The notes under the pieces were generated by a model. The model did not search any database and was not told where the DNA came from. It worked only from the letters and a program-made list of their open reading frames with translations. Made by a program: the position numbers and the translations under genes. 64,000 bases of DNA from Paracoccus solventivorans (GTDB lineage Bacteria; Pseudomonadota; Alphaproteobacteria; Rhodobacterales; Rhodobacteraceae): the NCBI RefSeq assembly GCF_900142875.1, contig NZ_FRCK01000012.1, positions 1 to 64,000 on the forward strand. The letters run 5' to 3'. Shown in pieces: positions 21,954-59,931 of the stretch (positions are counted from its first letter, which is position 1; every line of letters starts with the position of its first letter).

Positions 21954-22112
21954 CACGCCCCCTTCAGCCTCGGTCCACCGATGCCGCGGCGATCCAAGGA
22001 AAGCGCGCGACACCACGATCATGCACATGACATAGGGCATCGCGCCGCCAAGGACAGGGCGCGGGGGGATTTCGGGCGCGATCCCGGCCGGCAGGCGGGC
22101 CGGAGCGCCTTC

Positions 22113-42702: not shown

Positions 42703-43673
42703 GTCGGAATCCCGGTTTGCGGAAAGCGGCGGATGGTGGCCGCCACGATCCGGTGCAGCGCGGCCAGGGTGTCGGGCGCGACGTCGATCGGGCGGCCGTC
42801 GGCGGCGGTCAGCGGGGCCGGGGCCGGCTCGGGCAGGCGCTGGTGGATCACCGCCACATGCGCCAGCGCCACCACCAGCGCGCCAAGATCGCTGAAATGG
42901 ATCGGGTCCGGCGCGCCCGCATCGTCGCGGGCAAACAGCTGCTCGCGCGAGGTGACGCCGGGGACCTGCCCCGCCTCGGCGGCGCGGGCGACGGCGGCCA
43001 TCACCTGCCCGCCGGGGATCAGGTGGATCGGCCCCACCCCCGGCACCGCCAGCGCGCGGCGCAGGATCTGCTGTTCCCACAGTTCGGGCAGGTCGCGGTC
43101 GATACGTTCCAGCCAGCCCTCGGGGTCGGTCAGCTGGTGCCAGCTTTCGTAAAGATAGATGCGCAGGTCTGGGCGGGCCTGCCGCGCCAGCAGCGCCCAT
43201 TGCGCCAGGTAATGCGCCGAGTGGTGCCAGCGGATCGCGTCCTTGAGCTCGACCATCTCGGTCAGCACCAGCACATCGGCCCAGCCCGATTCCAGCGCCT
43301 GCCGCACCGGACGGAAATGCGGATGCGCGTTCTCGCGCTCGAACCCGGGCACCGCGGCGTCGCCCTGCCAGTGCTGCATCAGCGAGGCGCCCCAGCCCAG
43401 CTGCACCGCGTGGTCCTGCCCGCCCAAGGGCCCCGCCAGCGCAGTGGCCAGCGCCGGCATGTCGCGCCCGACCAGGCTGTGGCCCAGGTGATAGACCTTG
43501 ACCGGCGGCACCGGCGGCGCCAGCCGGGGCTGCGCGGCGCGATAATCCTCAGGCGGCAACGGCTCGGGCATCGGCGGCCCGGCGCGGCGCTGCCGGCGCC
43601 AGCCCAGCGCCGCGGCCGCGCCCGCAGCCAGCACCCCCGCGGCCCCCAGCAACCCCTGCCGGCGGCTAACCAT
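42699..43673 (-). CDS. SGNH-hydrolase-like exported or anchored protein
   Basis: The 324-residue protein begins with RRQGLLGAAGVLAAGAAAAL, an export signal or membrane anchor with an arginine pair. YHLGHSLVGRDM (Ser66) and DPIHFSDLG (Asp256, His259) fit blocks I and V of the SGNH/GDSL hydrolases, which often add or remove acetyl groups from polysaccharides. The block I sequence is GHSL rather than GDSL. It is the first gene of the four-gene minus-strand set and divergent from the GT4 gene at 43749. Confidence 0.65.
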   Translation of the reverse strand: MVSRRQGLLGAAGVLAAGAAAALGWRRQRRAGPPMPEPLPPEDYRAAQPRLAPPVPPVKVYHLGHSLVGRDMPALATALAGPLGGQDHAVQLGWGASLMQHWQGDAAVPGFERENAHPHFRPVRQALESGWADVLVLTEMVELKDAIRWHHSAHYLAQWALLARQARPDLRIYLYESWHQLTDPEGWLERIDRDLPELWEQQILRRALAVPGVGPIHLIPGGQVMAAVARAAEAGQVPGVTSREQLFARDDAGAPDPIHFSDLGALVVALAHVAVIHQRLPEPAPAPLTAADGRPIDVAPDTLAALHRIVAATIRRFPQTGIPT

Positions 43674-43748: not shown

Positions 43749-45020
43749 ATGCCAGAACCAGCCGACGCAAGCCTGCTGATCTATGCGCCGGTGCCGCTGC
43801 ACCGGGACGGCGCGCAGCTTCTGCTTGAGGATCAGGCCTGCAACGGCCTGCGGCTGTGGGCGGCGCATTTCGCGCAGGTGACGGCGATCATGCCGGTTTC
43901 CGACGCCCCTGCCCCGGCCAGCTGGGTGCCGGTCGAGCGGGTCGGCCCGGCGCTGGAGCGCATCCGGCTGCTGCCGGTGCCGCAGGCCTGGACGCTGGGC
44001 CGGTTCCTGCGCGCCCGTCCCGCCGTGCGGCGGCTGATCCGCGACGAGATCGCGCGCGCGGATTACCTGTCCTTTGCCATCGGCGGGCTGGTCGGCGACT
44101 GGGGCGCGCTGGCCTGCGCCGAGGCCTGTCGCATGGGCCGCCCCCATGCCGTCTGGACCGACCGCGTGGAATCCGAGGTCACGCGGATGGAGGCCGTCGG
44201 CGCCCCGCGGCTGCGCCGCCGGCTCAAGGCGCAGCTGATCTGGCGCCCGATGGCGGCGCTGGAACGGCGCGCGGTGCGCCGCGCGACGCTGGGGCTGTTC
44301 CACGGGCAGGCGACCTTCGACCATTACGCGCGCTTCAGCCGCGATCCGCATCTGGTCCACGACATCCACGTCCGCGCCGCCGACCTGATCCCGGCCAAGG
44401 CGCTGGCCGCCAAGGCCGCGCGCGCAGGCGCGGGCGGGCCGCTGCGGCTGGTCTATGTCGGCCGCGCCGACACGATGAAAGGCCCGCTCGACTGGATCGA
44501 GGCGCTGGAGCTGGCGGCGCAGGCCGGCGTCGATCTGCGCGCCAGCTGGATCGGCGGGGGCGAACAGATCGAGGCGCTGCGCGCCCGCATCGCCCAGGGA
44601 CCGCTGGCCGGGCAGGTGACGGCGCCGGGGTTCCTTTCCGACCGGGCCGCGGTGCTGGCGGCGCTGCGGGATGCCGATGCGCTGCTGTTCTGCCACCGCA
44701 CCCCGGAATCGCCGCGGGTGCTGATCGAGGCGCTGGTCTCGGGCGCGCCGCTGATCGGCTATGAGGGACCGTTCCAGCAGTCGCTGATCGCGGACAATGG
44801 GGCCGGGGCGCTGGTCCCCGACGGGCGGCCGGACCTGCTGGCGCAGGAACTGGCCCTGCTGCACCGTCATCGCGCAACGCTGGCGCGGATGATCGCGGCG
44901 ACCGCCAAGGCCGCCCACGGCCACGACGACGAGACCGCGTTTGCGCATCGCAGCCGGATCATCCTGACGCATCTGCCGCCCCCGCAGGATCGGGCCGGGG
45001 ATCCGCACAGGCCGCGATGA
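43749..45020 (+). CDS. Glycosyltransferase, GT4-like
   Basis: The 423-residue protein has a GT-B layout: a variable N-terminal acceptor half and a C-terminal donor half with LRLVYVGRADTMKGPLDWIE (about 232-251) and CHRTPESPRVLIEALVSGAP (about 314-333), where the glutamates bind the nucleotide sugar. AGGAG lies before the ATG at 43749. Its last 62 bases overlap the 3' end of the convergent phosphopantetheinyl transferase gene. Sugar unknown. Confidence 0.82.
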   Translation: MPEPADASLLIYAPVPLHRDGAQLLLEDQACNGLRLWAAHFAQVTAIMPVSDAPAPASWVPVERVGPALERIRLLPVPQAWTLGRFLRARPAVRRLIRDEIARADYLSFAIGGLVGDWGALACAEACRMGRPHAVWTDRVESEVTRMEAVGAPRLRRRLKAQLIWRPMAALERRAVRRATLGLFHGQATFDHYARFSRDPHLVHDIHVRAADLIPAKALAAKAARAGAGGPLRLVYVGRADTMKGPLDWIEALELAAQAGVDLRASWIGGGEQIEALRARIAQGPLAGQVTAPGFLSDRAAVLAALRDADALLFCHRTPESPRVLIEALVSGAPLIGYEGPFQQSLIADNGAGALVPDGRPDLLAQELALLHRHRATLARMIAATAKAAHGHDDETAFAHRSRIILTHLPPPQDRAGDPHRPR

Positions 45021-45669
45021 CCAGCCCCTCGGCCCGCGCCAGCCGCACCGGCAGCACCGCACCCGCCGGATAGGGCGGCGCGGCGCGGGTAAAGCGCAGG
45101 GTCGCCGCATCCGCCGTCAGCGTTTCCAGCCGCAGGTCGGTGAACTCCAGCAGCTGGCGGCTGCGCGGGAACTGGCATTTATAGGCGGCCTCCTTGGCGG
45201 CGAAGCCTTCGCGCGCACGGCGCAGCGGCTGGGGCGAGGCCGCCAACAGGCGCTGTTCCGCCGGATCGGGAAAGATCAGCGGCAGCAGATCGCCGGGCAG
45301 TTCCTCGTCGGGTTCGGCGTCCAGCCCCAGCGCCAGCGCCCCGGCGCGCGCGGCCACCGCGAAGGCCAGCGCCCCGTGGTGGGTGATGCTGCCGGTGACG
45401 CCGGCGGGCCAGATCGGGGCGCGGTCCTCGCCCATCGGGATCGGACTTGCGGGCAGGCCCAGCCGTGCCATCGCCTGCCGCGCGGCGTGGCGGCCGGCGG
45501 CGAACTCGGCCTGCCGGGCCGGGACGGCGCGCGCCATGGCGGCGGCCTCGGCCCCCAGCAGCGGCCCGCCCTGCCCGACCACGCAGGCGCCGACGCCGAT
45601 GCCCGGGGGAAACAGCGTCGCCACCGTGCGGGCGGCGCTTGTCCCGGTCAGGACGGCCTCAGCCGCCAT
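44959..45669 (-). CDS. 4'-phosphopantetheinyl transferase (EntD/Sfp type)
   Basis: It attaches the phosphopantetheine arm to carrier domains of NRPS and PKS enzymes. The 236-residue protein has GSITHHGALAFA near 100, the magnesium-binding GLDAEP and the motif FAAKEAAYK, all expected for EntD-type transferases. It is the last gene of the PKS-GT2-NRPS operon, starting 11 bases inside the NRPS gene, so it most likely activates the PCP (Ser1441) and ACP (Ser1798) encoded upstream. Confidence 0.86.
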   Translation of the reverse strand: MAAEAVLTGTSAARTVATLFPPGIGVGACVVGQGGPLLGAEAAAMARAVPARQAEFAAGRHAARQAMARLGLPASPIPMGEDRAPIWPAGVTGSITHHGALAFAVAARAGALALGLDAEPDEELPGDLLPLIFPDPAEQRLLAASPQPLRRAREGFAAKEAAYKCQFPRSRQLLEFTDLRLETLTADAATLRFTRAAPPYPAGAVLPVRLARAEGLVIAACADPRPDPAGAADASG

Positions 45670-48600
45670 CGCGCTGCGCCCGCAGCGCGCGGCGCCGCGC
45701 GATGGCATCGGCGCGGGCGGTTTCCTCGGCAGCCTCGGCCTCCTTGCGGGCGCTGTCGTCCGCGGTGCCGCCGGACAGATGGGCTGCCAGCGATTCCAGC
45801 GTCGGAAAGCGGAAGATGTCGGTAATCGACAGCCGCACGCCCCCGCCCAGCGCCGCCCGGATTTCCCGGTGCGCCTGCACCGCCAGCAGCGAATGCCCGC
45901 CCAGCGCAAAGAAATTGTCGCGCGAGCCGATCCGCGGCCGGTTCAGCACCCGCGCCCAGACCGCGGCGATGGTCGCCTCGATCCCGTCCGAGGGCGCCAC
46001 GAAATCCTCGGCCACCGCATCGGCGCTTTCCACCACGTCGGGCAGCGCCTTACGGTCCACCTTGCGGTTGGGGGTCAGCGGGAACTCGGCCAGCCGCACG
46101 AAATGCGCAGGGATCATATGCGGGGGCAGGCGCTCGGCCAGATGGCGCTTGACCGCATCGGTGGACAGCTGGTGATCGCCGGTCAGATAGGCGATCAGCC
46201 GCAGGTCGCCCGGACCCATCTCGCGGCAGATCACCACCGCCTGCCGGACGCCGGCGCATTCCTCGGCGGCGGCCTCGATCTCGCCCAGCTCGATGCGATA
46301 ACCGCGCAGCTTGACCTGATGGTCGGCGCGGCCGAGGAACTCGAGCTTGGCGCCGCCCTGCCCGTCGGGACGCCAGCGCACCAGATCGCCGGTGCCGTAG
46401 ATGCGGCCGGGGGCGAAGGGGTTGGGGCGGAACCGGTCCTCGGTCAGGTCGGGGCGCTGCCAGTAGCCGCGGGCCACGCCCTCGCCGCCGATCCAAAGCT
46501 CGCCCTCGGCGCCCAGGGCCACGGGCTGGCCGTCCGCATCCAGCACATAGCATTGGGTGTTGGCGATGGGGGTGCCGATGCTGACCACCGGGTCCGCGAC
46601 CCCGGCGGGGGCGGTGGTGGACCAGATCGTGGTCTCGGTCGGGCCATACATGTTGGTGATCCGGCGCGCGCCGGCGCGGGTCAGATCACCCACCAGCGAC
46701 GCCGGCAGCGCCTCGCCCCCCAGCACCAGATGGCGCAGCCCGCCCATGGCGGCGCGGGCGTCGTCGTTCATCGCGATCATCCGCGCCATCGAGGGCGTGC
46801 ATTGCATATGCGTGGCGCGGTGGCGGGTGATCTGCGCGGCGATCGACCAATCGTCCGAGGCCAGCTCGGGCGCCATGTTACTGCGGCGCAGGATCTCGGC
46901 CAGCGGCGCCAGCCCTTCCAGCACCGTCTCGCAGGGCAGGCCATAGTCGATCAGGCAGGCGATCTCGTCCACGCCGATGCGCTTGAGCTGTTCGACCCGG
47001 GCCAGCCCGTCCTCGACGGTGCCGAACAGGCCCGAATCCTCGAAATAGCGCTGGAAGGCGAAATCGAGGATCGCCTCGGTCTCCTCGGCATCCAGGCTGC
47101 GCAGGTCGATGTCCATCGGGTTGGTCACGCCCTGCGGTTTCTTGAAGGCGGGAAAGGCCCAGGCGTATTGCTTGACCAACGCCGCGGCCGAGCGCAGGTA
47201 ATCCTTCATCGGGCCGCGGGCGCGTTCGCGCGCCACCTCGCGGTCGTGGCAGATATAGCTGTGCAGCATCAGCGTGACCTTGAAATCCGCCGGATCGCGG
47301 CCGGATTTGCGCAGCGCGTCGTGATAGATGGCGATCTTTTCGCCGACCTCCTCGACCGACTGGCCCAGCAGGTGGGTCAGCACGTTGGCGCCGATCTCGC
47401 CGGCCTCGCGCCAGGTGGCGGGGTTGCCGGCGGTGGTCACCCAGATCGACAGCTCGCGGCTGACCGGGCGCGGCTGCGTCACCACATCGACCATGCGCCC
47501 GTCGTTCAGCGGAAACGGCACCGCCTCGCCCCGCCACATCCGGCGCAGCTTGTCGATGGTGTCGAACATCGCCGCCTTGTTGTTGGGCGGGCCGTTTTCC
47601 GGGCGCAGCACGAAATCCTCGGGGTGCCAGCCGGACGCGATGCCCAGCGCCGTGCGCCCGTTGGTCAGGTTGTCGATGACCGCCCATTCCTCGGCCACCC
47701 GGATCGGATGGTGCAGGGGCGCCACGCAGGACCCGGCGCGGACCTCGAGGTTGGTCGTTACAGCTGCAACCGCCGCCCCGGTGACCGAGGGGTTCGGATA
47801 GGGGCCGCCAAAGGCGTGGAAATGCCGCTCCGGCGTCCAGACGGCGCAGAACCCGTGCTGGTCGGCGAACTTCGCGCCCTCCAGCAGGACGCGGTATTTC
47901 TGCCGCCCCACGCCGTCGTCGTTGCCCCAGTAGAACAGGCTGAAGTCCATCTTGCGGGCGCTGATGCGGCTGCCGGCGGACACCAGCGCACGCTCTTCCT
48001 CGCCCATCAGCACGACATGATAGCCGCGGGCCAGCGTCCAGAACAGCTCCAGCACCGAGATGTCGAACGAGAGCGAGGTCACCGCCAGCCACACCCGCCC
48101 GTCGCTGTCGGGGATGCGCTGGTCCATGCCGGCGAAGAAGTTCGCCACGTTGCGATGTTCCAGCATCACCCCCTTGGGGCGGCCGGTCGAGCCCGAGGTG
48201 TAGATCAGATAGGCCAGATCCTCCGGCGCGGCGCCGCCCTCGGGGTTGGTTTCGGGCATCGCGGCCAGCCGCGGCTCGGCGTCCAGCACCAGAAGCTCGG
48301 CGTCGCTGTCGGGCAGCGCGGGTTCCAGCGCGGTTTCGGTGATGATGACCGGGGCGCCGGAATCTTCCACATAAAGGGCGATGCGGTCGGCAGGATAGGC
48401 CGGGTCCAGCGGCAGATAGGCGCCGCCGGCCTTGAGGATCCCCAGCGCCCCCACCAGCAGCAGGGGCGAGCGGCGCAGGTTCAGCCCCACCACCGTGCCC
48501 GGCCCCACCCCCATCTGCCGCAGCAGATGCGCCAGCCGGTTGGCGCGGGCGTTCAGCTGCGCATAGGTGAGGGTCCGGTCCTCATGCGTCAGCGCGGCGC

Positions 48601-50212
48601 CGCCGGGAGTACGGGCGGCCTGCGCCTCGAACGCGCGGTGGATCGAGTGGTCGGGGACGGCGCAGGCGGTGCCGTTCAGGCCGGTCAGCAGCAGCTGGCG
48701 CTCGGCCTCGGGCATGGTCGGGATGGTGGCGGCATCGGCGTCGCTGGCGGCTGCGGCGACCGCAGGGGTGAAATGCGCCAGCCGCGCGGCCAGCAGCTGC
48801 GCGCCCATCCGGTCGATGCGGGACAGGTCCGCCAGCAGCCGCCCGTCGGCGGTCACGGTCAACACGGTGCCGGGGACCGGGCGGTTCGCGTCGGACCAGC
48901 CGATGGCGGGGATCAGCGTGGCCCCGATGGCAGGGTCGCGCAGCGGCAGGTCCACGGCGAACTCGGGCCAGCGGCGGGCGCGCTGGAACCCCTGTTCGGC
49001 ATCAGCGGCGATACGCTCCAGCGGCCCGGTGCCCGCCAGCGGCAGCGGCGCCCAGCCCGACAGATACCCCGGCAGCCGCGGCGCATTGCCATCGGCAAAG
49101 GCCAGATACACGCGCTCGCGCCCCGCCAGCTGCGCGGCCCACAGCGCCAGCGCCGAGGGCGTCGCGGCGGCGCCCAGCGGGAACTCCTGCCAGTCGGCAG
49201 CACCCTGCCCCGGCTGCGCAAAGGGCAGCGCGGCGGGTTCCAGAGCCAGCGCGTGGCGGAACGCGCCCTCGCCCCCGGCGACGGCGGCGATGGCGGCGTC
49301 GATCCGCGCGACCTCATCGGCGGGGGCAGAGGCCAGCACCTCGCCCAGCTGCGCCGCGTCCGCGGCGGCGACCTCGGTCCCGTCCATCTCGCGCAGCCCC
49401 GACAGGCGCACGGCGCCGCTGGCGCAGGCGACGGTCAGGCCGGTGTCATCGGCGGCCAGCACCGTGCCGGGCGCGCCGGCGCCCTCGGCCAGCGCAGCGG
49501 TGCGGACGGAAAGCAGCCGCCCCCGCAGCCACAGCTTGGGCAGCGCCAGCGGGTTGGCGAAATCGCCGTGGTCGAGCGCGCGGACCAGCCGCGCCACCTC
49601 GGCCGCCGGGCGGTCGAAGCCCAGCCGCCCCGCCGCTGCGGGACGCTTGTCGCGGGGGTGATAGCTGCGCAGCGACAGGTCCTGCGGGCACCGCGCGGGC
49701 GCGCCGGTAAGCAGCGCCTCGGCCAGCTCGGGGAAGCTGTCCACCGCGGCTTCCCACGCGCGGGCGTTCAGCGTCAGAGTGGTGTCGTCCGGGGCAATCT
49801 CGAACTCGCGCGAGACCAGGATGTCGCCCTCGTCGATGCCGCCCTCGATCAGGTGCCAGGTGATGCCGTGGCGCGGCTCGGCCCCCAGGATCGCCCAGGC
49901 GGGGGCGTTCAGCCCGGCGTGGCGCGGCAGCGGCCCGTCGTGAAAGTTCACCGCGCCGCGCCGCGCGCCGTCCAGCAGCGGCTGCGGGATGATCGACAGG
50001 TTCGCCACGCTCAGCAGCCAGTCGTAATCCAGTCCCTCGGGGCTGCGCAGATCATCCTGCGCGCGCAGGGGAATGCCGCGCCCTTCGGCCCAGCGGGCGA
50101 TGTCGGGGTTGCGCGTGGCCACCGCGGCGATGGTCAGGCCGCGCCCCAGCCAATGCTCGGCGCACTGGACCAGAAGCGATTCGTTACCGATGAAAAGCGC
50201 CGAAACGGACAT
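45659..50212 (-). CDS. NRPS loading module: formyltransferase - partial C - A (with inserted luciferase-like monooxygenase) - PCP
   Basis: The 1517 residues read in order: formyltransferase (1 to about 275; NFH 89-91 and Asp127 form the Fmt-type catalytic set); a region like the C-terminal half of a condensation domain (about 300-500) with no HHxxxDG; adenylation N-part (520-735; YTSGSTGRPKG 671-681, FDIS 716-719); a bacterial luciferase-like monooxygenase insert (about 755-1105); the rest of the A domain (1110-1395; NMYGPTETT 1187-1195, Lys1384); and a PCP (1405-1480, Ser1441 in GGHSL). The specificity residues read D-I-L-Q-V-G-M-I-W-K, two changes from the glycine code as I recall it. The insert is of the MupA/Atu3671 type. 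No TE, so the chain must pass to the PKS. Confidence 0.9.
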   Translation of the reverse strand: MSVSALFIGNESLLVQCAEHWLGRGLTIAAVATRNPDIARWAEGRGIPLRAQDDLRSPEGLDYDWLLSVANLSIIPQPLLDGARRGAVNFHDGPLPRHAGLNAPAWAILGAEPRHGITWHLIEGGIDEGDILVSREFEIAPDDTTLTLNARAWEAAVDSFPELAEALLTGAPARCPQDLSLRSYHPRDKRPAAAGRLGFDRPAAEVARLVRALDHGDFANPLALPKLWLRGRLLSVRTAALAEGAGAPGTVLAADDTGLTVACASGAVRLSGLREMDGTEVAAADAAQLGEVLASAPADEVARIDAAIAAVAGGEGAFRHALALEPAALPFAQPGQGAADWQEFPLGAAATPSALALWAAQLAGRERVYLAFADGNAPRLPGYLSGWAPLPLAGTGPLERIAADAEQGFQRARRWPEFAVDLPLRDPAIGATLIPAIGWSDANRPVPGTVLTVTADGRLLADLSRIDRMGAQLLAARLAHFTPAVAAAASDADAATIPTMPEAERQLLLTGLNGTACAVPDHSIHRAFEAQAARTPGGAALTHEDRTLTYAQLNARANRLAHLLRQMGVGPGTVVGLNLRRSPLLLVGALGILKAGGAYLPLDPAYPADRIALYVEDSGAPVIITETALEPALPDSDAELLVLDAEPRLAAMPETNPEGGAAPEDLAYLIYTSGSTGRPKGVMLEHRNVANFFAGMDQRIPDSDGRVWLAVTSLSFDISVLELFWTLARGYHVVLMGEEERALVSAGSRISARKMDFSLFYWGNDDGVGRQKYRVLLEGAKFADQHGFCAVWTPERHFHAFGGPYPNPSVTGAAVAAVTTNLEVRAGSCVAPLHHPIRVAEEWAVIDNLTNGRTALGIASGWHPEDFVLRPENGPPNNKAAMFDTIDKLRRMWRGEAVPFPLNDGRMVDVVTQPRPVSRELSIWVTTAGNPATWREAGEIGANVLTHLLGQSVEEVGEKIAIYHDALRKSGRDPADFKVTLMLHSYICHDREVARERARGPMKDYLRSAAALVKQYAWAFPAFKKPQGVTNPMDIDLRSLDAEETEAILDFAFQRYFEDSGLFGTVEDGLARVEQLKRIGVDEIACLIDYGLPCETVLEGLAPLAEILRRSNMAPELASDDWSIAAQITRHRATHMQCTPSMARMIAMNDDARAAMGGLRHLVLGGEALPASLVGDLTRAGARRITNMYGPTETTIWSTTAPAGVADPVVSIGTPIANTQCYVLDADGQPVALGAEGELWIGGEGVARGYWQRPDLTEDRFRPNPFAPGRIYGTGDLVRWRPDGQGGAKLEFLGRADHQVKLRGYRIELGEIEAAAEECAGVRQAVVICREMGPGDLRLIAYLTGDHQLSTDAVKRHLAERLPPHMIPAHFVRLAEFPLTPNRKVDRKALPDVVESADAVAEDFVAPSDGIEATIAAVWARVLNRPRIGSRDNFFALGGHSLLAVQAHREIRAALGGGVRLSITDIFRFPTLESLAAHLSGGTADDSARKEAEAAEETARADAIARRRALRAQRDGG

Positions 50213-50221
50213 GGAAAACCT

Positions 50222-51172
50222 CTAACGATGTGACTCGGGGGCTGGCCGGGGGCCGGTCAGCATATGGGCGAGCAGCTGGCGGGTGAACCCCGGGGCTGCC
50301 GCGCGGCGCCCGCGCAGCCGGGCAATCATAGACCCGGCGACCACCGCGCCGGTCGCGGCAAGATAGCGCAGCTGCCCGTGGTTCTTGCGCCAGTAATGGC
50401 GGCGGCTGTCGAACCAGTAGTCGGGCGTCCGCGCCCAGGTCTTCATCCCCGTCGAGACCGAGCCGATATGCATCACCCGGCTGGCAGGCACGAAATCGGT
50501 CTGCCACCCGGCGCGGGCGGCGCGCAGGCACAGGTCGGTTTCCTCGAAATAAAGGAAGAACTCCTCGTCGAAGATGCCGATCTCGTCCAGCAGGTCCTGC
50601 CGCATCATCAGGCTGGCGCCCGCCACCCAGTCCATGCGCGTGGGCCGGTCGGGGATCGGCCGCGGCACCACATGGCGGTGCAGCAGCCGGGTGATCGGGC
50701 CGGTGACGGCCGCGCCCTCGAACTCGGACGCGACCGAGGGAAAGCGGAAACAGGCGGTGTGGGGGTCGCCGTCGGGGCCGTGGATATAGCTGCCGGCCAT
50801 GCCGGTCCGCGGATGCGCCAGCATGTGGTCCAGCAGCGCCCGCACCGCATCCGGAGCCGGAAACGCGTCCGAGTTCAGCAGATAGACGAAATCCGGCCGC
50901 CGCCCGTCCGGCAGCCCGGCCCGGATCGCGTGGTTGTTGCCGGCGCCGAAACCGCCGTTGCGGCCCGATTGCAGCAGCCGCACCCGGTCCCAGCCGCGTT
51001 CGGCGATGCCGCGGGCGATGGCACCCTCAGAGCCGTCGCCGCTGTCGTTGTCGACGATGGTGATGGCGCCGTCGATGCCCGCCATCGCCGCCACCAGCGC
51101 CTCGGCCGAGCGCAGGGTCATGTCCGGCGTACGCCAGTTCAGGATGATCGCGTGCAGCACCGTCATGGTCAT
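50222..51172 (-). CDS. Glycosyltransferase, GT2 (rhamnosyltransferase-like), between the PKS and NRPS genes
   Basis: The 316-residue protein has the GT-A opening VLHAIILNWRTPDMTLRSAE, IVDNDSGDGSE, GRNGGFGAGNNHAIR (about 72-86) and LLNSDAFP, the WbbL-type rhamnosyltransferase pattern, and FDEEFFLYFEETDLCLRA. It starts in an ATGA overlap with the PKS gene and ends ten bases before the NRPS start, so it belongs to their operon. It may glycosylate the PKS/NRPS product, or it is a polysaccharide enzyme sharing the transcript. Sugar specificity is not read from sequence. Confidence 0.85.
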   Translation of the reverse strand: MTMTVLHAIILNWRTPDMTLRSAEALVAAMAGIDGAITIVDNDSGDGSEGAIARGIAERGWDRVRLLQSGRNGGFGAGNNHAIRAGLPDGRRPDFVYLLNSDAFPAPDAVRALLDHMLAHPRTGMAGSYIHGPDGDPHTACFRFPSVASEFEGAAVTGPITRLLHRHVVPRPIPDRPTRMDWVAGASLMMRQDLLDEIGIFDEEFFLYFEETDLCLRAARAGWQTDFVPASRVMHIGSVSTGMKTWARTPDYWFDSRRHYWRKNHGQLRYLAATGAVVAGSMIARLRGRRAAAPGFTRQLLAHMLTGPRPAPESHR

Positions 51173-54100
51173 TCCGCCGCCTGGCGCATGGGCGCCGCTT
51201 CCGCCTGCGCCAGGATGCGCCGCAGATGCGAGGCGAGCAACCGGACGTTGGGTTCCAGCACCATGCTGTCGTGGTCCCCCGGCACCTCGATCACCTCGAG
51301 CGCGGGGGAAAGCGGGGTCAGGCCGTTGTCTTCCATCACATATTCCTTGGCCGCACTGATCCAGCGCCCGCCCGACACCTTGAAGCGCCGGTCCAGCGGC
51401 GGGCGCAGCAGCACCACCCGCCCGTCGCGCCGCACCATGTCGAAGCGGGGCAGCGCCGCATAGAACGCCGCCTCGATCGCCGAGTTGTGCAGCTGGTGCG
51501 CATCCTCGACCGCGCGGGGATTGCGTTGCGCGCGCTTCCATTCGGCACGTTCGCGGGCCCAGCGCGACAGATAGGCGGGGCCTTCCTCGCGCAACAGCGC
51601 CAGCTTGATCAGCGCCTTGTCCACCCGCCCCGGCACCGGCCGCATCGGCAGCGGCGTGTCCAGCAGCACGGTGACGGCGACGGTTTCGCCCGCCTCTTCA
51701 AGCTGGCGGGCGATTTCCCAGGCGATCAGCCCGCCGCCCGAGAACCCGCCGACCAGATACGGCCCCTGCGGCTGCACCTGCTGCATTTCCGCGATGTAAT
51801 CGCGGGCGGCGTCGGTGAAATCCTCATGCGGCGGCGCGTCCCCGAACAGCCCCCGCGCCTGCAGGCCGTAGAACGGCCGCTCATGGCCCAACAGCTGCGC
51901 AAGATGGCGCAGGTTCAGCACGTTGCCGAACATCCCCGCCACCAGGAAGAACGGCGTGCGCGGCCCGCCGTCGCCGCGATGCATCGCGACCAGATGGGTG
52001 TGGCGGCGCATGGGGGTGACCTCGGCCGGGGCGCTGTCTGCCGCCGGCTCGGCGGTATCGCCCGCCGGCCCGATCTGCGCCTCGATCAGCGCGGCGCAGG
52101 CGGCGATGGTCGGGGCCTCGAACAGGATCGAGATTGGGAAATCCACCGCATAGGTCTTGCGGATCATCGAAAACAGCCGCACCGCGATCAGCGAATGCCC
52201 GCCAAGGTCGAAGAAACTGTCCTCGACCCCCAGGTTGCCGACGCCCAGCAGGTCCTTCCAGAACCCGACCAGCGTGCGCTCGATATCGTTGCGGGGGGCG
52301 ACGAATTCGCTGTCGAGCTCGGGGCGCTCGAACTCGGTGGCGCCGGGTTTCGCCGCATCCGCCCCGGCATCGGCCTGCGCGATCAGCGCCGGCAGCGGGA
52401 TCGAGCTGACCACCAGCTGCCCGGCGCCGCTGGCGATGGCGCGCAGGAACGCCTCGGCCCCCTCGTCGGCGTGGATGCCCTGCGACAGATTGTGGCGCAG
52501 CTGCTCCTCGGCCGGGCCGATCTGGCGCGGCGCATCGGCGGCGTCAAAGGCGATCTCGCGCGCGTCGGGCGTGGCGGACAGGTCCAGCGCACCCTCGATC
52601 CGGCGCAGGGTAAAGCCGGCGATCTCGGCCACCACGTGGCCATCGGGGTCGCTCAGGGTGATGTCGAACCGCGCCAGCCCGTCGCCGTCGCGGTTGGGGG
52701 CAGCGTTGCGGATATGGCTGACGATCTGCGCAGGCAGCGCCCCGGTCAGGGTGATCGCGCCATAGCCCAGCGGCACCCACAGCCTTGCGTCGTCATAGCC
52801 CTCGATCAGCCGCATCGCCCAGCCGGTAGCGATGTCCAGCAGCGCCGGATGCAGCAGGTATCCGGCATCCGCACCCCGGAACTGCGGCGGCAGCGCCAGA
52901 TCGGCAATGCCCTCGCCCGTGCCCAAGGCCCGGCTTTGCAGCACCCGCCAGCGCGGGCCGAAACGCAGGTGGCGTTCCTGATCGGTCACCAGCCCCTCGC
53001 CGCGCTCGGGCGCGGGGCAGCGGGCGCGGATCGCGGCAAGGTCCAGCGTGGGGGGCGCGGCGGCATCGGTCTCGACCCGCGCCTCGGCGTGCAGCAGCCA
53101 GCCGGTGCTGCCGTCCACCGCCACCGCGCTGCGGATCTCGGCGTCATAGCCGCCCTGCGTGCGGGTCAGCCGCACCCGGATGCGCGCCTGCTCGCCATCC
53201 GCCACCAGCAGCGGCCGCAGGAAGGTCAGGTCGGTGATGCGCAGCGGCCCCGGGGCCTCGACCTCGGCCAGCGCCTCGGCCAGCAGCTCCAGATAGCCGG
53301 TGCCGGGCAGCAGCGCCTGGCCTTGGGCCAGCCGGTGGCCGTCGATGATCCAGTCGCGGTGGTCCACCACCCCCGAAAACAGCCGCCGGCCGTCGGGATC
53401 GAACCCGGCCTCGGCCAGCAGGGGCCGGGTGATCGGCGTCGGCGCGGCAGGCGCGGGCGGCGCCAGCGCCGCGGCGGCCATGCCGACATCGGCCCAGATC
53501 CCCCAGTTGATCGCCAGCACCCGCGTGGCCCCGCCAGCGCGCGATTCCGCCCAGGCATTCAGGAAGCTGTTGGCGGCGACGTAATCCAGCTGCCCGGGCG
53601 GCGTCGTCACCGTGGACGAGGACGAAAACACCACGATCAGCCCGACCGAGCCGTCCGGGAACACGCTGTCCAGCACCATGGTGCCATGCAGCTTGGGGGC
53701 CAGAACCTGCTCGATGGATTCCGGGGTCTTGGCCAGGATCGGCGCGTCGTCGACCACGCCGGCGGCATGGATCACCGCGTCGATGCGGCCGAACCGGGCC
53801 TCGGCGGCAGCGCGGGCGGCCTCGACCTCTTCGACGTTGCAGATGTCGGCGGCGAGGGTCAGCACCTCGGCGCCCTCGGCCTCCAGCGCCTCGACCGCGC
53901 GCAGCCTTACTGCCAGCGGGTCGCCGGGCGGCGCCTGCCGGATCAGCGCCGGCCACTCGCCGCGTTCCGGCAGGGCACTGCGGCCCAAAAGCACCAGCCG
54001 GGCGCCATGGTCGCGCCACAGCCGCCGCGCCACGGTCAGGCCGATGCCACCAAAGGCGCCGGTGATCAGGCAGACCGCACCCCGCGGCAGCGCCGCAGCC

Positions 54101-57100
54101 TCAGCCGCGGGCAGCGCCCGGGGCCGCCAGTTACGCTCATACCGCACGCCGGCGCGCAGGGCGGCGGTGCGGCGGCCGGGGGGTGCCAGCAGCTCGGCCA
54201 GAACCTCGGCGGCGGTGTCGGCCGGCGGCATCCCCGGGTCGATATCCAGGCTGGAACAGCTCGCCCCGGCGAATTCGCGCGGGATCACCCCCAGCGGGCC
54301 GGCAATCGCGGCTTTTTCCGGGTGGGCGAGCCGCTCGATCTTCTGTCCCGAAATATCCCCGCCGGAGGCTCCGGCCGCGCCGCCCACACCCCCGCGCAGC
54401 GGCAGCGCCGCCGCGCCGCTGGTGATCGCGGTCAGATGCCAGGGCGCGGGCAGCCCGGCCTCGTCCATCGCCTGCGCAAGGAAGGTCAGGCTGTAGAACC
54501 CCTGTTCCAGATTGCGGTGGAACAGGCTCGACCCCGGCCGGAAACCCTCATCCGCGGCCAGCCAGAAATGCGCGATCCGGTCGGGGGCGAGACCCTGCGC
54601 CACCAGATCGCCCAGCAGCAGGTCGTAGTCGTCGCGCCCGCGCTCGGCCGAGATGCAATAGCGGTCCTGATCCAGCCGGGCGAAACTGTCGCCGGCCAAG
54701 ACCTCGATCACCCGATGCCCGGCGGCGCGCAGGGGGGCGGCCACCGCGGCGCCCAAGCCCTGCCCATCCGACAGGAACAGCCAGCAGCGCTTTTCCGCGC
54801 GGTCGAGCGCATCCACCGCGATCTCGGCGCTGCGGCGCAGCCAGAACGGCTCCCACCCCCAGTCGGCCACGTCGTCCACCCGTTCGGGGAAACGGGCGGT
54901 GTCGTCGCGGGCGACGGTCGCGGCGCGGTCGATGAAATAGCGCTGGCGCTGGAACGGGTAGGTCGGCAGCACCACCCGCTGCCGCGGCACATCGCCCCAG
55001 AACTGCGGCCAGTCCACCGCCACCCCCAGCGCCCACAGCCGGGTCAGCGTGGCGATGAACCACTCATCATCGGCGACCTGGTGGTCGGGGTGGCGCAGCG
55101 TTGCCAGCGACTGGTTGGCCGGCACCCCGTTGGCCACAGCCAGCGAGGCCAGCGTCCGCCCCGGCCCGACCTCGAGATAAACCCGCCCCTTGTCGCGGCT
55201 CAGATGCGCCATGCCGTCGGCGAAATGCACGGTATTGCGCAGATGCGCGACCCAATACTCCGGGTCGGTCGCCTGCGCGGCGGTCAGTTCTGTGCCGGTG
55301 CGGTTGGAAATCACCGGCAGCCTGGGCACCGATAGCTTCATCCCGCGCAGATGCGCGCCGAAATCGGCCAGGATCGGCTCGAGCATCCGGGAATGTGCGG
55401 CGATGTCGATGCGGATGCGCTGGGGGGTGATCTCATCCGCCGCCAGCCGCGCGGCCAACGCATCCAGCGCCGCATCGGGGCCGGAAATCACGCAAAGCTC
55501 GGGCGCGTTGACCGAGGCGATGTCCAGATCATCGCTCAGATACGGCCGCACCGCATCGACCGACAGCGGCACCGACAGCATCCCCCCCGGCGGCACGCTG
55601 TCGAACAGCTGCCCGCGCCGGTGCACCAGCCCGATGCAATCCTGAAACGACATCACCCCGGCGATGCAGGCGGCGACGTTTTCGCCCATCGAATGCCCGA
55701 TCAGCGCCGAGGGCTGCACGCCCCAGCTCATCCACAGCTTCGCCAGCGCATATTCGGTGATCGCGATCAGCGGCAGCTGGACCGAGGGCCTGGTCAGCGC
55801 CGCCTCGGCCGCCGCTTCCTGCCCCGGCTCGGGCAGCCAGACGGCGCGGGGGTCATAGTCCAGCATCGGGGCCAGATGCGACAGGCCCTTGTCCATCCAC
55901 TCGCGGAACTCGGGCTCGGTGTCGTAAAGCCCGCGCGCCATCTGCGCATATTGCGCGCCGCCGCCGGGGAACATGAACACCACCTCGAGGCGGTCGCCCA
56001 GATGCTGGTGGGTGAACACCTGCCGCTGGTCGCCCGATTCCAGCCGCGCGGCGGCGGTGTCGTGGTCACTGGCCACGACGATGCGGCGATGGTCGAACTG
56101 GCGCCGCCCCTGCATCAGGGTAAAGGCGACATCGGCCAGCTTCTGTTCGGGATGGGCGCGCAGATGCGCGGCCAGCCGCGTCGTGGCCTGATCCAGCGCC
56201 GCCTTGTTGCGGGCCGAGACCACCAGCGGCTGGAACGGGAAATCCGGCTCCTCGGATGGCGCGCGCGCGGGCGCTTCTTCAAGCACCAGATGCGCGTTGG
56301 TGCCGCCGACGCCAAGGCTGTTCACCCCCGCCCGCCGCGGCGCCCCCTGCTGCGGGAACGGCGTCAGCCGGTCGCAGACCGCGAACGGCGAATGCGCGAA
56401 GTCGATCGAGGGGTTCGGCGCCTCATACCCCAGCGAGGGCGGGATTTCCGCGTGATGCAGCGCCAGCGACGCCTTGATGACGCTGGCCACCCCCGCGGCG
56501 GTGTCCAGATGGCCGATATTGGTCTTGACGCTGCCCACCAGGCAGCGCGCGGCATCCGTGCCGGTTTCGGCGAAAGCCTCGGTCAGGGCGGCGATCTCGA
56601 TCGGGTCACCCAGATAGGTGCCGGTGCCGTGGCATTCGACATAGCCGATGCTGTCGGCGCTGACGCCCGCCGCGCGATGCGCCGCCGCCACCGCGGCCGC
56701 CTGCCCGTCGACCGAGGGCGCCAGATAGCCGGCCTTGGCCGCACCGTCGTTGTTGATGGCGCTGCCGCGGATCACCGCCCAGATATGGTCGCCCTCGGCC
56801 AGCGCATCGGCCAGCGGGCGCAGCACCACGCAGCCCGCGCCGGACCCGAACACCGTCCCCTGCCCGCGGTGGTCGAAGGCGTGGCAATGCCCGTCGGGGG
56901 ACAGCACCTCGCCGTCCTGATACAGATAGCCGCGGCCGTGGGGCAGCTCGATGGTGACGCCGCCGGCCAGCGCCATGGCGCATTCGCCGCGCTGGATCGA
57001 CTGGCAGGCCATGTGGATCGCCACCAGCGAGGTCGAGCACGCGGTCTGCACCGAAATGCTGGGCCCGGTCAGGTCGAGGATATGGCTGACCCGGGTGGAC

Positions 57101-57585
57101 AGGAAATCCTTGTCGTTGCCGGTATGGCGCAGCAGGAACATGCCGGTCGAGCGCACCAGCTCGTCCTGGGAACAGACGTTGAAATAGAAATAGCTGCCCA
57201 TGCCGCAGCCGGCAAAGACGCCGATGGGGCGGCCCAGACCTTCCGGCGTGTGGCCGGCGTTCTCCATCGCCTCCCACGCGGTTTCCAGGAACTGGCGGTG
57301 CTGGGGGTCCATGATCGCCGCCTCTTTCGGCGACAGGCCGAAGAACTCGGCATCGAAATGGTCGAAGCGGTCCAGCGTCGCGGCAGCGGGGACGTAGTTC
57401 GGCTGGCGCATCCGGGACGGGCTTTCTCCGGCCTCGCGCAGCTCGGACTCGGTCAGGGTGCGAATCGATTCGACGCCCTGCCGCAGGTTGTCCCAATACT
57501 CGGCGATGGAGCCCGCCCCCGGCAGATGCGCGGCCATCCCGACGATCGCGATGTCGCCCGAACCGGGCCTGTCCTGCATATCCAT
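51169..57585 (-). CDS. Type I polyketide synthase, KS-AT-KR-DH-ACP-TE
   Basis: 2138 residues from the ATG at 57585 (an AGGGG lies upstream; an ATG at 57603 and a TTG at 57612 are less likely). KS about 12-437 with Cys183 (TACSTS), His319 and His359; AT about 533-830 with Ser632 (GHSMG) and IAAH at 728-731 where malonyl enzymes usually have HAFH; KR about 1168-1375 (GAFGGIG, Tyr1335); DH about 1405-1663 with His1417 in HxxxGxxxxP and Asp1584; ACP about 1765-1838 (Ser1798); TE about 1866-2125 (Ser1949, Asp1976, His2105). All key residues are present. The DH lies after the KR, the reverse of the usual order. The terminal TE makes it the last module of the line. Confidence 0.92.
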   Translation of the reverse strand: MDMQDRPGSGDIAIVGMAAHLPGAGSIAEYWDNLRQGVESIRTLTESELREAGESPSRMRQPNYVPAAATLDRFDHFDAEFFGLSPKEAAIMDPQHRQFLETAWEAMENAGHTPEGLGRPIGVFAGCGMGSYFYFNVCSQDELVRSTGMFLLRHTGNDKDFLSTRVSHILDLTGPSISVQTACSTSLVAIHMACQSIQRGECAMALAGGVTIELPHGRGYLYQDGEVLSPDGHCHAFDHRGQGTVFGSGAGCVVLRPLADALAEGDHIWAVIRGSAINNDGAAKAGYLAPSVDGQAAAVAAAHRAAGVSADSIGYVECHGTGTYLGDPIEIAALTEAFAETGTDAARCLVGSVKTNIGHLDTAAGVASVIKASLALHHAEIPPSLGYEAPNPSIDFAHSPFAVCDRLTPFPQQGAPRRAGVNSLGVGGTNAHLVLEEAPARAPSEEPDFPFQPLVVSARNKAALDQATTRLAAHLRAHPEQKLADVAFTLMQGRRQFDHRRIVVASDHDTAAARLESGDQRQVFTHQHLGDRLEVVFMFPGGGAQYAQMARGLYDTEPEFREWMDKGLSHLAPMLDYDPRAVWLPEPGQEAAAEAALTRPSVQLPLIAITEYALAKLWMSWGVQPSALIGHSMGENVAACIAGVMSFQDCIGLVHRRGQLFDSVPPGGMLSVPLSVDAVRPYLSDDLDIASVNAPELCVISGPDAALDALAARLAADEITPQRIRIDIAAHSRMLEPILADFGAHLRGMKLSVPRLPVISNRTGTELTAAQATDPEYWVAHLRNTVHFADGMAHLSRDKGRVYLEVGPGRTLASLAVANGVPANQSLATLRHPDHQVADDEWFIATLTRLWALGVAVDWPQFWGDVPRQRVVLPTYPFQRQRYFIDRAATVARDDTARFPERVDDVADWGWEPFWLRRSAEIAVDALDRAEKRCWLFLSDGQGLGAAVAAPLRAAGHRVIEVLAGDSFARLDQDRYCISAERGRDDYDLLLGDLVAQGLAPDRIAHFWLAADEGFRPGSSLFHRNLEQGFYSLTFLAQAMDEAGLPAPWHLTAITSGAAALPLRGGVGGAAGASGGDISGQKIERLAHPEKAAIAGPLGVIPREFAGASCSSLDIDPGMPPADTAAEVLAELLAPPGRRTAALRAGVRYERNWRPRALPAAEAAALPRGAVCLITGAFGGIGLTVARRLWRDHGARLVLLGRSALPERGEWPALIRQAPPGDPLAVRLRAVEALEAEGAEVLTLAADICNVEEVEAARAAAEARFGRIDAVIHAAGVVDDAPILAKTPESIEQVLAPKLHGTMVLDSVFPDGSVGLIVVFSSSSTVTTPPGQLDYVAANSFLNAWAESRAGGATRVLAINWGIWADVGMAAAALAPPAPAAPTPITRPLLAEAGFDPDGRRLFSGVVDHRDWIIDGHRLAQGQALLPGTGYLELLAEALAEVEAPGPLRITDLTFLRPLLVADGEQARIRVRLTRTQGGYDAEIRSAVAVDGSTGWLLHAEARVETDAAAPPTLDLAAIRARCPAPERGEGLVTDQERHLRFGPRWRVLQSRALGTGEGIADLALPPQFRGADAGYLLHPALLDIATGWAMRLIEGYDDARLWVPLGYGAITLTGALPAQIVSHIRNAAPNRDGDGLARFDITLSDPDGHVVAEIAGFTLRRIEGALDLSATPDAREIAFDAADAPRQIGPAEEQLRHNLSQGIHADEGAEAFLRAIASGAGQLVVSSIPLPALIAQADAGADAAKPGATEFERPELDSEFVAPRNDIERTLVGFWKDLLGVGNLGVEDSFFDLGGHSLIAVRLFSMIRKTYAVDFPISILFEAPTIAACAALIEAQIGPAGDTAEPAADSAPAEVTPMRRHTHLVAMHRGDGGPRTPFFLVAGMFGNVLNLRHLAQLLGHERPFYGLQARGLFGDAPPHEDFTDAARDYIAEMQQVQPQGPYLVGGFSGGGLIAWEIARQLEEAGETVAVTVLLDTPLPMRPVPGRVDKALIKLALLREEGPAYLSRWARERAEWKRAQRNPRAVEDAHQLHNSAIEAAFYAALPRFDMVRRDGRVVLLRPPLDRRFKVSGGRWISAAKEYVMEDNGLTPLSPALEVIEVPGDHDSMVLEPNVRLLASHLRRILAQAEAAPMRQAAE

Positions 57586-57680
57586 GCGTGCATCGCCCCT
57601 CATTAAACACAACCACAGTCAGATATCGCCAGATCCGGCAACGGGTATACAGCAGTCAATATGAACAAAAACTCTGTCTA

Positions 57681-57708
57681 TTTATACAGCCTGTCGCAGC
57701 ACGGTCAG
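57681..57708 (-). promoter_or_regulatory. Candidate promoter of the PKS-GT2-NRPS operon
   Basis: On the minus strand CTGACC (57708-57703) is followed after 16 bp by TATAAA (57686-57681), a fair match to a sigma-70 pair. It lies at the end of the ligase gene and about 95 bp upstream of the PKS start, in the AT-rich 119-bp gap. Evidence is the sequence match and position only. Confidence 0.35.
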
Positions 57709-59175: not shown

Positions 59176-59931
59176 ATGAAGTTCCGTTACGAGGACACCA
59201 CCATAACGGTCAATATGCCGGATCGCGAGACTCTGCTGGCGGAAATCCGGCAGCGGCTGCGCGAGGGGCGGGGCTTTGCGGTGGCCACGATCAACCTGGA
59301 CCACCTGGTCAAGCTGCGCGGCGATGCCGGCTTCCGCCGGGCCTATGCGGCCCAGGACCTGATCGTGGCCGACGGCAACCCGATCGTGTGGCTGGCGCGC
59401 ACGGCGGGGCACCGGGTGGCGCTGGTCCCCGGCTCGGATCTGGTGCTGCCGATGGCGGCGCTGGCGGCGGACGAGGATGCGCCAGTCGCGCTGCTGGGCA
59501 GCACCGCCGAGGTGCTGGACGCCGCCGCCGCCCGGCTGGAGGCGCTCTGCCCCGGGCTGCGGGTGGTGGCGCGGATCGCGCCGCCGATGGGGTTCGACCC
59601 AAGGGGACCGCAGGCCGACGCCCTGCTGGCGAAACTGGGCGCGACCGGGGCGCGGGTGACGTTCCTTGCACTCGGGGCGCCCAAGCAGGAAATCCTCGCC
59701 GCCCGCGGGCGCGAGCTGTTGCCGGCGATGGGGTTTCTGTCGGTGGGCGCGGGCATCGACTTCATCGCCGGGGCGCAGACACGGGCGCCGGCGCTGGTGC
59801 GGGGGCTGGCGCTGGAATGGCTGTGGCGCGCCGCCTCGGCCCCGCGGCGGCTGGGGCCGCGCTATGCGAAATGCGCGGCGATCCTGCCGGGGGAATACCT
59901 GGCCGCACGGCGCCAGCGCCGCGAGGGCTGA
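59176..59931 (+). CDS. WecG/TagA/CpsF-family glycosyltransferase
   Basis: A 251-residue member of the family that adds N-acetylmannosaminuronate or a similar sugar to an undecaprenyl-linked primer (GT26). The motifs ATINLDHLVKLRGD (about 36-49), ADGNPIVWLAR, PGSDLVLPM and GAPKQEILAARGRELLPA are typical, and the tail RGLALEWLWRAASAPRRLG is the membrane-associated C-terminal part. Divergent from the ligase gene, convergent with the flippase gene 61 bp downstream. The actual sugar is not known. Confidence 0.88.
   Translation: MKFRYEDTTITVNMPDRETLLAEIRQRLREGRGFAVATINLDHLVKLRGDAGFRRAYAAQDLIVADGNPIVWLARTAGHRVALVPGSDLVLPMAALAADEDAPVALLGSTAEVLDAAAARLEALCPGLRVVARIAPPMGFDPRGPQADALLAKLGATGARVTFLALGAPKQEILAARGRELLPAMGFLSVGAGIDFIAGAQTRAPALVRGLALEWLWRAASAPRRLGPRYAKCAAILPGEYLAARRQRREG

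What the first reader, a model, noticed from the sequence alone, without database searches (positions are those of the whole stretch)
44959..57585. Self-contained PKS-GT-NRPS-PPTase operon embedded in a polysaccharide locus
The four genes are tightly coupled, share a candidate promoter and include their own activating enzyme and a glycosyltransferase. The neighbours make, flip and polymerise a polysaccharide. The peptide-polyketide may be glycosylated, or attached to the polymer as a non-sugar decoration. A predicted simplest product is a formylated 4-amino-butenoyl chain, possibly oxidised. This is the strongest candidate for an undescribed system here.
Basis: inference. Interest (0 to 1): 0.85.

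Follow-up and report, generated by a model that had tools for sequence, protein, structure and literature searches.

The report
Peptide-polyketide operon in polysaccharide gene loci
A small assembly line that should make a short formylated amino-acid/polyketide unit sits, in many related bacteria, among the genes that build a secreted polysaccharide and goes together with one particular type of polymer-linking enzyme, so the unit is probably built onto that polymer, which still has to be tested.

Summary
The operon is real: PKS, GT2, NRPS and PPTase, translationally coupled, minus strand. The NRPS is a loading module: formyltransferase, relic C-lobe of a condensation domain, glycine-type A domain split by a luciferase-like monooxygenase between a4 and a5, PCP. 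The PKS is KS-AT-KR-DH-ACP-TE. PKS, GT2 and NRPS occur together in 94 of 94 other loci examined; 87 of these carry a core EPS gene in the flanks held. In 246 genomes of the family the NRPS is in 89, and a strong relative of the window's Wzy-like polymerase is in 82 of those 89 and in 2 others, both with PKS/NRPS pieces nearby. Sixteen Wzy genes not next to the operon (5 at 50-416 kb on the same contig, 11 on another contig) all fall in the operon-linked Wzy clade; 15 from genomes without the NRPS all fall outside it. This ties the assembly line to one polymer type. Best reading: it makes an N-formyl (hydroxy)glycyl-butenoyl-type substituent of a Wzy-dependent exopolysaccharide. Attachment and chemistry are untested. 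Against: two sister genomes carry PKS-NRPS beside a glutamine-synthetase-like gene without GT2, that Wzy or recognised core EPS genes, and outgroup NRPSs sit in ordinary NRPS-PKS clusters.

The parts
51169..57603 (-). Type I PKS, KS-AT-KR-DH-ACP-TE
   Evidence: Pfam domains; KS, AT, KR, DH, ACP and TE active-site residues (assigned by motif) each in 83 of 83 sequences compared
50222..51172 (-). GT2 glycosyltransferase, overlaps the PKS stop by 4 bases
   Evidence: Pfam GT2 families; matched in 94 of 94 other loci; N-x-D and E-E residues 93 of 93
45659..50212 (-). NRPS loading module: formyltransferase - C-lobe relic - A (Gly-type code) split by LLM monooxygenase - PCP
   Evidence: Pfam and TIGR04020; AF2 models and fold comparisons; residues conserved in 93 sequences
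48677..49327 (-). Inside the NRPS (residues 296-512): C-terminal lobe of a condensation domain, N-lobe absent
44959..45669 (-). 4'-phosphopantetheinyl transferase (4PPT_N + ACPS)
   Evidence: Pfam; HMM matches in 82 of 95 loci counting the window
57705..59117 (-). Wzy-like polymerase, directly upstream of the PKS
   Evidence: weak Wzy_C match, 20.7 bits against a cut-off of 31.7; co-occurrence and tree
59176..59931 (+). WecG/TagA/CpsF glycosyltransferase, the only match in the genome
   Evidence: Pfam; single match in G000
59993..61363 (-). Wzx-type flippase
   Evidence: Pfam Polysacc_synt_3; MOP flippase family match below its cut-off
61614..63227 (-). GMC oxidoreductase, recurrent in these EPS loci
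   Evidence: Pfam; in 10 of 95 loci and in 5 of the 13 second loci
63640..64000 (+). Initiating sugar transferase (runs on past the window end, to 64359 of the contig)
   Evidence: ORF; homologues annotated 'sugar transferase' in Parasedimentitalea and Ruegeria
43749..45020 (+). GT4 glycosyltransferase, convergent with the operon
   Evidence: Pfam; start
42699..43673 (-). Conserved protein without a Pfam match, labelled SGNH-like by me by eye
   Evidence: no Pfam match; homologues in 29 of 95 loci
41089..42702 (-). Conserved protein with a likely signal peptide (by eye), no Pfam match
   Evidence: no Pfam match; homologues in 33 of 95 loci

Best explanation
The operon makes a short non-sugar unit that becomes a substituent of a Wzx/Wzy-dependent exopolysaccharide. 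Steps. (1) The PPTase arms the PCP and ACP. (2) The A domain loads glycine, the formyltransferase formylates it, and the built-in monooxygenase can hydroxylate the glycine alpha carbon. (3) The PKS takes the (hydroxy)formylglycyl unit, adds one malonyl unit, then reduces and dehydrates it to an N-formyl 4-amino-(4-hydroxy)-but-2-enoyl thioester. (4) The PKS thioesterase transfers it onto a sugar of the lipid-linked repeat unit. (5) GT2 helps build the repeat unit, Wzx flips it, and a specialised Wzy polymerises repeats that carry the unit. Shown: gene content, domain order, conserved active-site residues, synteny, and coupling to one Wzy clade. Inferred: substrate, extender unit, product, transfer by the thioesterase, and the order of steps 2 to 5.
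For: PKS, GT2 and NRPS in 94 of 94 loci; a core EPS gene in 73 of 80 named loci and 14 of 14 same-genus loci. In 246 family genomes NRPS is in 89, GT2 (strong) in 84 of these and Wzy (strong) in 82 of these; 2 further genomes have strong GT2 and Wzy, and both have PKS/NRPS pieces beside GT2. Wzy is 50, 81, 100, 176 and 416 kb away on the same contig in G197, G272, G279, G141 and G126; with 11 on other contigs, all 16 such Wzy rows lie on the operon side of the tree, and all 15 NRPS-less rows on the other, joined only by L061 and G224, SH-aLRT 99. EPS setting also in Hyphomicrobiales with a different gene order. NRPS code D-I-L-Q-x-G-M-I/V-W-K nearly invariant and active-site residues invariant in 93 NRPS and 83 PKS sequences, so one product is expected across the clade. 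LLM (757-1107) between a4 (716) and a5 (1187) of the A domain, as reported for myxothiazol and melithiazol glycine modules (PMC10204066, passages); formyl-Gly loading as proposed for conglobatin (PMC4504003, passages).
Against: No compound, polymer or mutant was examined. I saw no dedicated acyltransferase conserved beside the operon (a recurrent acyltransferase-like cluster covers only 10 loci), so transfer rests on the thioesterase, which could simply hydrolyse. G251 and G224 carry PKS-NRPS with a glutamine-synthetase-like gene upstream, without GT2; the strong Wzy class is absent and no core EPS gene was recognised there; they are sisters nested in the operon clade. NRPSs of the same architecture outside the clade lie in NRPS-PKS clusters without recognised EPS genes. 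L061 has the operon but a Wzy of the other clade. The Fisher test is not corrected for shared ancestry. Wzy genes on another contig may still be near in a draft assembly.
Confidence: 0.62

Rival explanations
1. Free metabolite: the pair makes a diffusible small molecule (signal, toxin or metal binder) that is co-regulated with surface growth and so sits in EPS loci.
For: Relatives outside the clade sit in NRPS-PKS clusters without recognised EPS genes; the G251/G224 lineage uses the pair beside a glutamine-synthetase-like gene; genome papers file such genes as secondary metabolism (PMC4062626, PMC11225332, PMC8383342, passages).
Against: Coupling to one Wzy clade also when unlinked and to GT2 is not expected of a free compound. 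Among the window neighbours scanned with Pfam no exporter or resistance gene lies next to the operon; the nearest transporter gene recognised is a DctP-type binding protein at 36113-37138.
Confidence: 0.2
2. Cap or anchor: the unit is joined once per chain, as a chain end or lipid-like anchor, with GT2 making the linking sugar.
For: GT2 lies between PKS and NRPS in 88 of 94 loci; PKS-glycosyltransferase pairs build glycolipids elsewhere (recalled).
Against: The predicted acyl is short (one PKS module), and the enzyme that co-varies is the polymerase, which reads every repeat. GT2-Wzy pairs exist without PKS-NRPS.
Confidence: 0.12
3. Hitch-hiking: PKS-NRPS is merely inherited with a popular EPS locus and has no shared function.
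For: The genes are usually physically linked, and the family sample is not corrected for ancestry.
Against: Unlinked co-occurrence, different gene orders and two bacterial classes, and absence of GT2 and the strong-class Wzy in the same two genomes where the pair left EPS.
Confidence: 0.06

Closest known systems
Formyl-glycine loading modules (CongA of conglobatin, OzmO of oxazolomycin; LgrA F-A-PCP)
   Same: N-terminal formyltransferase, Gly-type A domain and PCP, feeding a PKS in CongA and OzmO (PMC4504003, passages)
   Different: Here a luciferase-like monooxygenase splits the A domain, a condensation C-lobe relic lies between F and A, one PKS extension module follows, and it sits in polysaccharide loci
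Monooxygenase-interrupted Gly modules of myxothiazol and melithiazol (MtaG/MelG, gene names recalled)
   Same: Gly-activating A domain with a flavin monooxygenase between a4 and a5 (PMC10204066, passages); in SolF of solanimycin it lies between a8 and a9
   Different: Those act on a growing peptide chain; here it is a starter module with a formyltransferase and no complete C domain
Wzx/Wzy-dependent exopolysaccharide loci
   Same: flippase, polymerase-like protein, WecG, initiating sugar transferase, Wzz
   Different: carry a PKS-NRPS assembly line and a polymerase clade tied to it
Dlt system (D-alanylation of teichoic acids), recalled
   Same: NRPS-like A domain and carrier protein charge an amino acid for transfer to a polymer
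   Different: a membrane acyltransferase does the transfer; no PKS, formylation or oxidation
Type I FAS/PKS genes in capsule loci (wcbR of Burkholderia CPS I, rkpA of Sinorhizobium), recalled
   Same: acyl assembly genes in a polysaccharide locus
   Different: no NRPS, formyltransferase or monooxygenase partner known to me; not compared here

Membership tests
Formylating NRPS loading module | N-terminal formyltransferase with N-H-D residues | tested here: met
Formylating NRPS loading module | no complete condensation domain upstream of A | tested here: met
   No Pfam condensation match; only the C-lobe fold found in 296-512
Formylating NRPS loading module | N-formyl group in the product | not testable with these tools
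   needs chemistry
Myxothiazol-type monooxygenase-interrupted Gly module | flavin monooxygenase domain between a4 and a5 | tested here: met
   LLM 757-1107 between FDISVLEL 716 and NMYGPTE 1187
Myxothiazol-type monooxygenase-interrupted Gly module | glycine specificity | tested here: inconclusive
   code DILQVGMIWK read from the alignment; its likeness to a glycine code DILQLGLIWK is recalled, not assayed
Myxothiazol-type monooxygenase-interrupted Gly module | condensation domain and thioesterase in the same protein, amide release | tested here: not met
   no condensation or thioesterase match in the NRPS; amide release not testable
Wzx/Wzy-dependent polysaccharide locus | Wzx flippase | tested here: met
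   PF13440, 172 bits
Wzx/Wzy-dependent polysaccharide locus | Wzy polymerase | tested here: inconclusive
   PF04932 at 20.7 bits, under the cut-off of 31.7
Wzx/Wzy-dependent polysaccharide locus | Wzz chain-length protein | tested here: met
   PF02706 at 27.9 bits against a cut-off of 25.5
Sfp/PptT-type PPTase | 4PPT_N and ACPS domains | tested here: met
   the NCBIfam cut-offs for PptT, Npt and EntD are not reached

The most novel reading that the evidence does not exclude
A new class of exopolysaccharide whose repeat unit carries an assembly-line-made, formylated and possibly oxidised amino-butenoyl group, with a dedicated polymerase clade (and GT2) that evolved to handle it. On this reading the NRPS-PKS is part of polymer construction rather than secondary metabolism in about a third of the genera of this family, with relatives in Comamonadaceae and Hyphomicrobiales. 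If the hydroxyglycyl carbon collapses, the group could be a reactive aldehyde that crosslinks the matrix.
Probability: 0.45. Interest if true: 0.87.

Novelty: new variant of a known kind. Interest (0 to 1): 0.73.

Why it matters
If true, a widespread 'orphan' PKS-NRPS pair of Rhodobacteraceae, filed as secondary metabolism in the papers I saw, would instead shape the cell-surface polymer, and polymer chemistry would have to include assembly-line substituents. The link to one polymerase clade gives a direct test (delete the PKS, look at the polymer) and a genomic marker for which strains make it. It would also show how a natural-product starter module can be recruited into matrix building and, in one lineage, leave it again.

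Tried and rejected
Rejected: a shared sigma-70 promoter for the four genes (0 found). Rejected: the region between the F and A domains as an unknown domain; it is a condensation C-lobe. Rejected: the operon as peculiar to this strain. Rejected: strict inseparability from EPS (G251, G224). Led nowhere: Rfam and tRNA scans, 0 hits; no PDB sequence match for GT2 at E 0.01. Ten paper searches listed no paper that I recognised as describing a PKS-NRPS pair in polysaccharide building; I saw listings (20 of 40 hits, 10 of 11) and passages of eight papers. These cover open-licence PMC only.

Limits. GT2 separates cleanly (317 bits and above against 190 and below). Wzy does not separate by bits alone: I classed 13 Wzy rows as weak because the same genome had a weak GT2 match. 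The tree placed 11 of these 13 outside the operon side; the other 2 (G282, second copy of G173) were not fetched. Of the 84 strong family rows, 16 were placed in a tree (the window, G138, G149 and 13 fetched); the rest are classed by score alone. G030 was left out of the Wzy and GT2 trees because its genes are broken. Of the 15 same-genus genomes with the NRPS, 13 Wzy were placed; G001 and G030 were not. G013, G018 and G028 (no full-length NRPS) have broken, weaker Wzy matches; G018 and G028 fall in the other clade, G013 was not placed. Six NRPS genomes have no Wzy match: G199, G200, G250 and G273 have the NRPS on contigs of 3.7-7.3 kb, so a gap is possible but not shown; G190 is an outgroup NRPS; G251 is a real exception. 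G224 has only the other Wzy clade. Conservation counts use 93 of 95 NRPS, 93 of 95 GT2 and 83 of 95 PKS; shorter pieces were dropped. The GT2 tree used 67 of 112 rows. In the NRPS trees I gave the label EPS to every operon row not named as lacking it, L072 and L082 included, although these two have no core EPS gene in the stretch held. In G251 and G224 I scanned 10 ORFs each with Pfam, not all.
Full report
What is there. Junctions are tight: a 4-base overlap, a 9-base gap and an 11-base overlap, and this is general: over 89 loci counting the window the median distance from the PKS stop to the start of the GT2 match is 3 bases, and from the GT2 stop to the start of the NRPS match 9 bases. The genome belongs to the Paracoccus group by inference: same-genus genome G022 has a contig of 3,634,760 bases, the length listed for a Paracoccus stylophorae protein, and G004 contig 10 is 255,051 bases, the length of a P. 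liaowanqingii plasmid.

Anatomy of the PKS. KS-AT-KR-DH-ACP-TE. The residues I assign by motif as KS Cys-His-His, AT Ser, KR Lys-Ser-Tyr-Asn, DH His-Asp, ACP Ser and TE Ser-His are identical in all 83 sequences compared. In myxothiazol and melithiazol that hydroxyl leads to cleavage, while in solanimycin B it is kept (PMC10204066, passages), so both outcomes are open here.

Synteny. A scan of genome contigs with an alignment of 14 NRPSs returned the 80 best of 548 confirmed loci: many Rhodobacteraceae genera, Hydrogenophaga and Curvibacter. Together with 14 same-genus loci, 94 of 94 have matches to PKS, GT2 and NRPS, a few only in part at contig ends. HMM searches over these and the window (95 loci) found PPTase in 82, Wzx in 49, Wzy in 43, WecG in 51, Wzz in 57 and the kinase-like partner in 58. 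A core EPS gene (Wzx, Wzy, WecG, Wzz, kinase-like or initiating transferase) is in the held flank of 73 of 80 named and 14 of 14 same-genus loci. Of the 7 without, 4 (L066, L079, L080, L082) sit on contigs or stretches of 10.0-18.5 kb; L100 has a ManC-like gene and an acyltransferase, L135 has aminotransferase, epimerase and GT4 genes, and L072 has a GT4 next door but also a transporter and a glutamine-synthetase-like gene. By eye, the gene just upstream of the PKS is Wzy in one set of loci and Wzx in another. WecG is single-copy in the 3.37-Mb genome of the window, so its place here is not a matter of abundance. In Hyphomicrobiales (Aminobacter, Shinella) the PKS is divergent from the NRPS and no GT2 lies between; both loci hold flippase and polysaccharide-export genes, and Shinella also an initiating transferase, a WecG relative and, 12 kb away, a 41% relative of GT2.

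Coupling beyond the neighbourhood. In 246 family genomes, nearly one per genus, the NRPS is in 89, the strong GT2 class in 86 and the strong Wzy class in 84. NRPS and GT2 coincide in 84, NRPS and Wzy in 82. The two genomes with GT2 and Wzy but no NRPS call (G138, G149) do have PKS and NRPS pieces beside GT2. Wzy lies 50-416 kb from the NRPS on the same contig in G197, G272, G279, G141 and G126, and on other contigs in others, including same-genus G008, G025 and G027. In a tree of 16 such unlinked Wzy proteins, 45 linked ones, 15 from genomes without the NRPS, and G224, the best split holds all 15 NRPS-less rows plus L061 and G224; all 16 unlinked rows lie on the other side (SH-aLRT 99). Five of the 16 are certainly distant; 11 are on another contig, which in a draft can still be near. 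Within the genus, 15 of 37 genomes have the NRPS and all 15 have a Wzy match; G009, G011 and G021 have a comparable Wzy without the NRPS, and these three fall in the other clade. Eleven family genomes have a distant GT2 and Wzy but no such NRPS; in the 20-40 kb held around them no PKS or NRPS was seen, and in G184, G278 and G214 WecG, Wzy and GT2 are adjacent (for G282 only GT2 was held). This looks like the same polysaccharide core without the assembly line.

Results against. G251 and G224 have PKS and NRPS without GT2; the strong Wzy class is absent from both genomes, and no core EPS gene was recognised around the pair, though G251 has the SGNH-like gene beside it. In both, the next gene recognised upstream of the PKS, on the same strand, is glutamine-synthetase-like (about 0.9 kb off in G251); the two copies are 53% identical. 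They are sister sequences nested inside the operon-associated NRPS clade, so this looks like one later departure. More distant NRPSs of the same F-A-LLM-PCP type (Aliiroseovarius plasmid, G332, G547, G190) lie in larger or two-gene NRPS-PKS clusters without EPS genes recognisable by homology to the window and fall outside the 34-row operon clade. So the starter module probably came from ordinary natural-product biosynthesis and can be used outside polymers. L061 has the operon with a Wzy of the other clade. The co-occurrence statistic is not corrected for ancestry.

Judgement. The most economical reading is a substituent of a Wzy-dependent EPS. Wzy reads the repeat unit, so a polymerase clade that follows the PKS-NRPS even when unlinked is what a modified repeat predicts. 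GT2 most likely builds the repeat unit rather than glycosylating a free compound. The transfer step is unknown; the PKS thioesterase is the enzyme always at hand that could do it.

What is in print. I saw passages of eight papers. Phaeobacter inhibens: a PKS (Inhi_1972) and, among three NRPSs, Inhi_1974, with one tag between them and no function given (PMC4062626); the gap would fit GT2, which I did not check. A Tritonibacter genome has T1PKS and NRPS-like clusters unlike any known (PMC11225332). A Rhodobacterales survey lists T1PKS and NRPS clusters as secondary metabolism (PMC8383342). A Rhizobium announcement names EPS genes and PKS/NRPS separately (PMC6256449). The others are PMC10204066, PMC4504003, PMC12858407 and PMC8795117, on related enzymes. 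In the listings of ten searches I saw no title or abstract start that ties such a pair to a polysaccharide. Most subscription papers are not held.

Noticed in passing
L219/L220 (G251) and L225/L226 (G224): A sister lineage keeps PKS-NRPS but has a glutamine-synthetase-like gene upstream on the same strand and no GT2 or recognised core EPS genes; it may ligate the released product to an amine.
   Followed up: partly
L162-L178 (G131, G133, G145, G155, G184, G214, G228, G278, G282, G286, G294): Loci with distant Wzy and GT2 relatives (G282: only GT2 held), in three cases WecG-Wzy-GT2 adjacent, and no PKS-NRPS: a natural 'without assembly line' counterpart.
   Followed up: partly
L161 25153-29067 and L098 2891-4438: UbiA-type prenyltransferase (in L161 with GtrA, FAD oxidoreductase and SDR) near the operon; it resembles a decaprenyl-phospho-arabinose route (recalled).
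   Followed up: no
window 41089-42702 and 42699-43673: Two adjacent conserved proteins without Pfam matches recur in these EPS loci (33 and 29 of 95 loci).
   Followed up: partly
window 20637-22040: Malonyl-CoA decarboxylase gene about 30 kb from the PKS; no link to the operon was tested.
   Followed up: no
L111: Record titled Exiguobacterium profundum isolate SSD5 carries a copy that groups with Gemmobacter-type sequences, so the record is probably mislabelled or mixed.
   Followed up: no
L072 (Curvibacter) and L062-L064 (Hydrogenophaga): Two separate placements of Comamonadaceae copies among Rhodobacteraceae NRPSs suggest at least two transfers of the operon.
   Followed up: partly
L055/L056 (G004) and L157, L160, L161: The operon and its surroundings lie on plasmids in several Rhodobacterales.
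   Followed up: no
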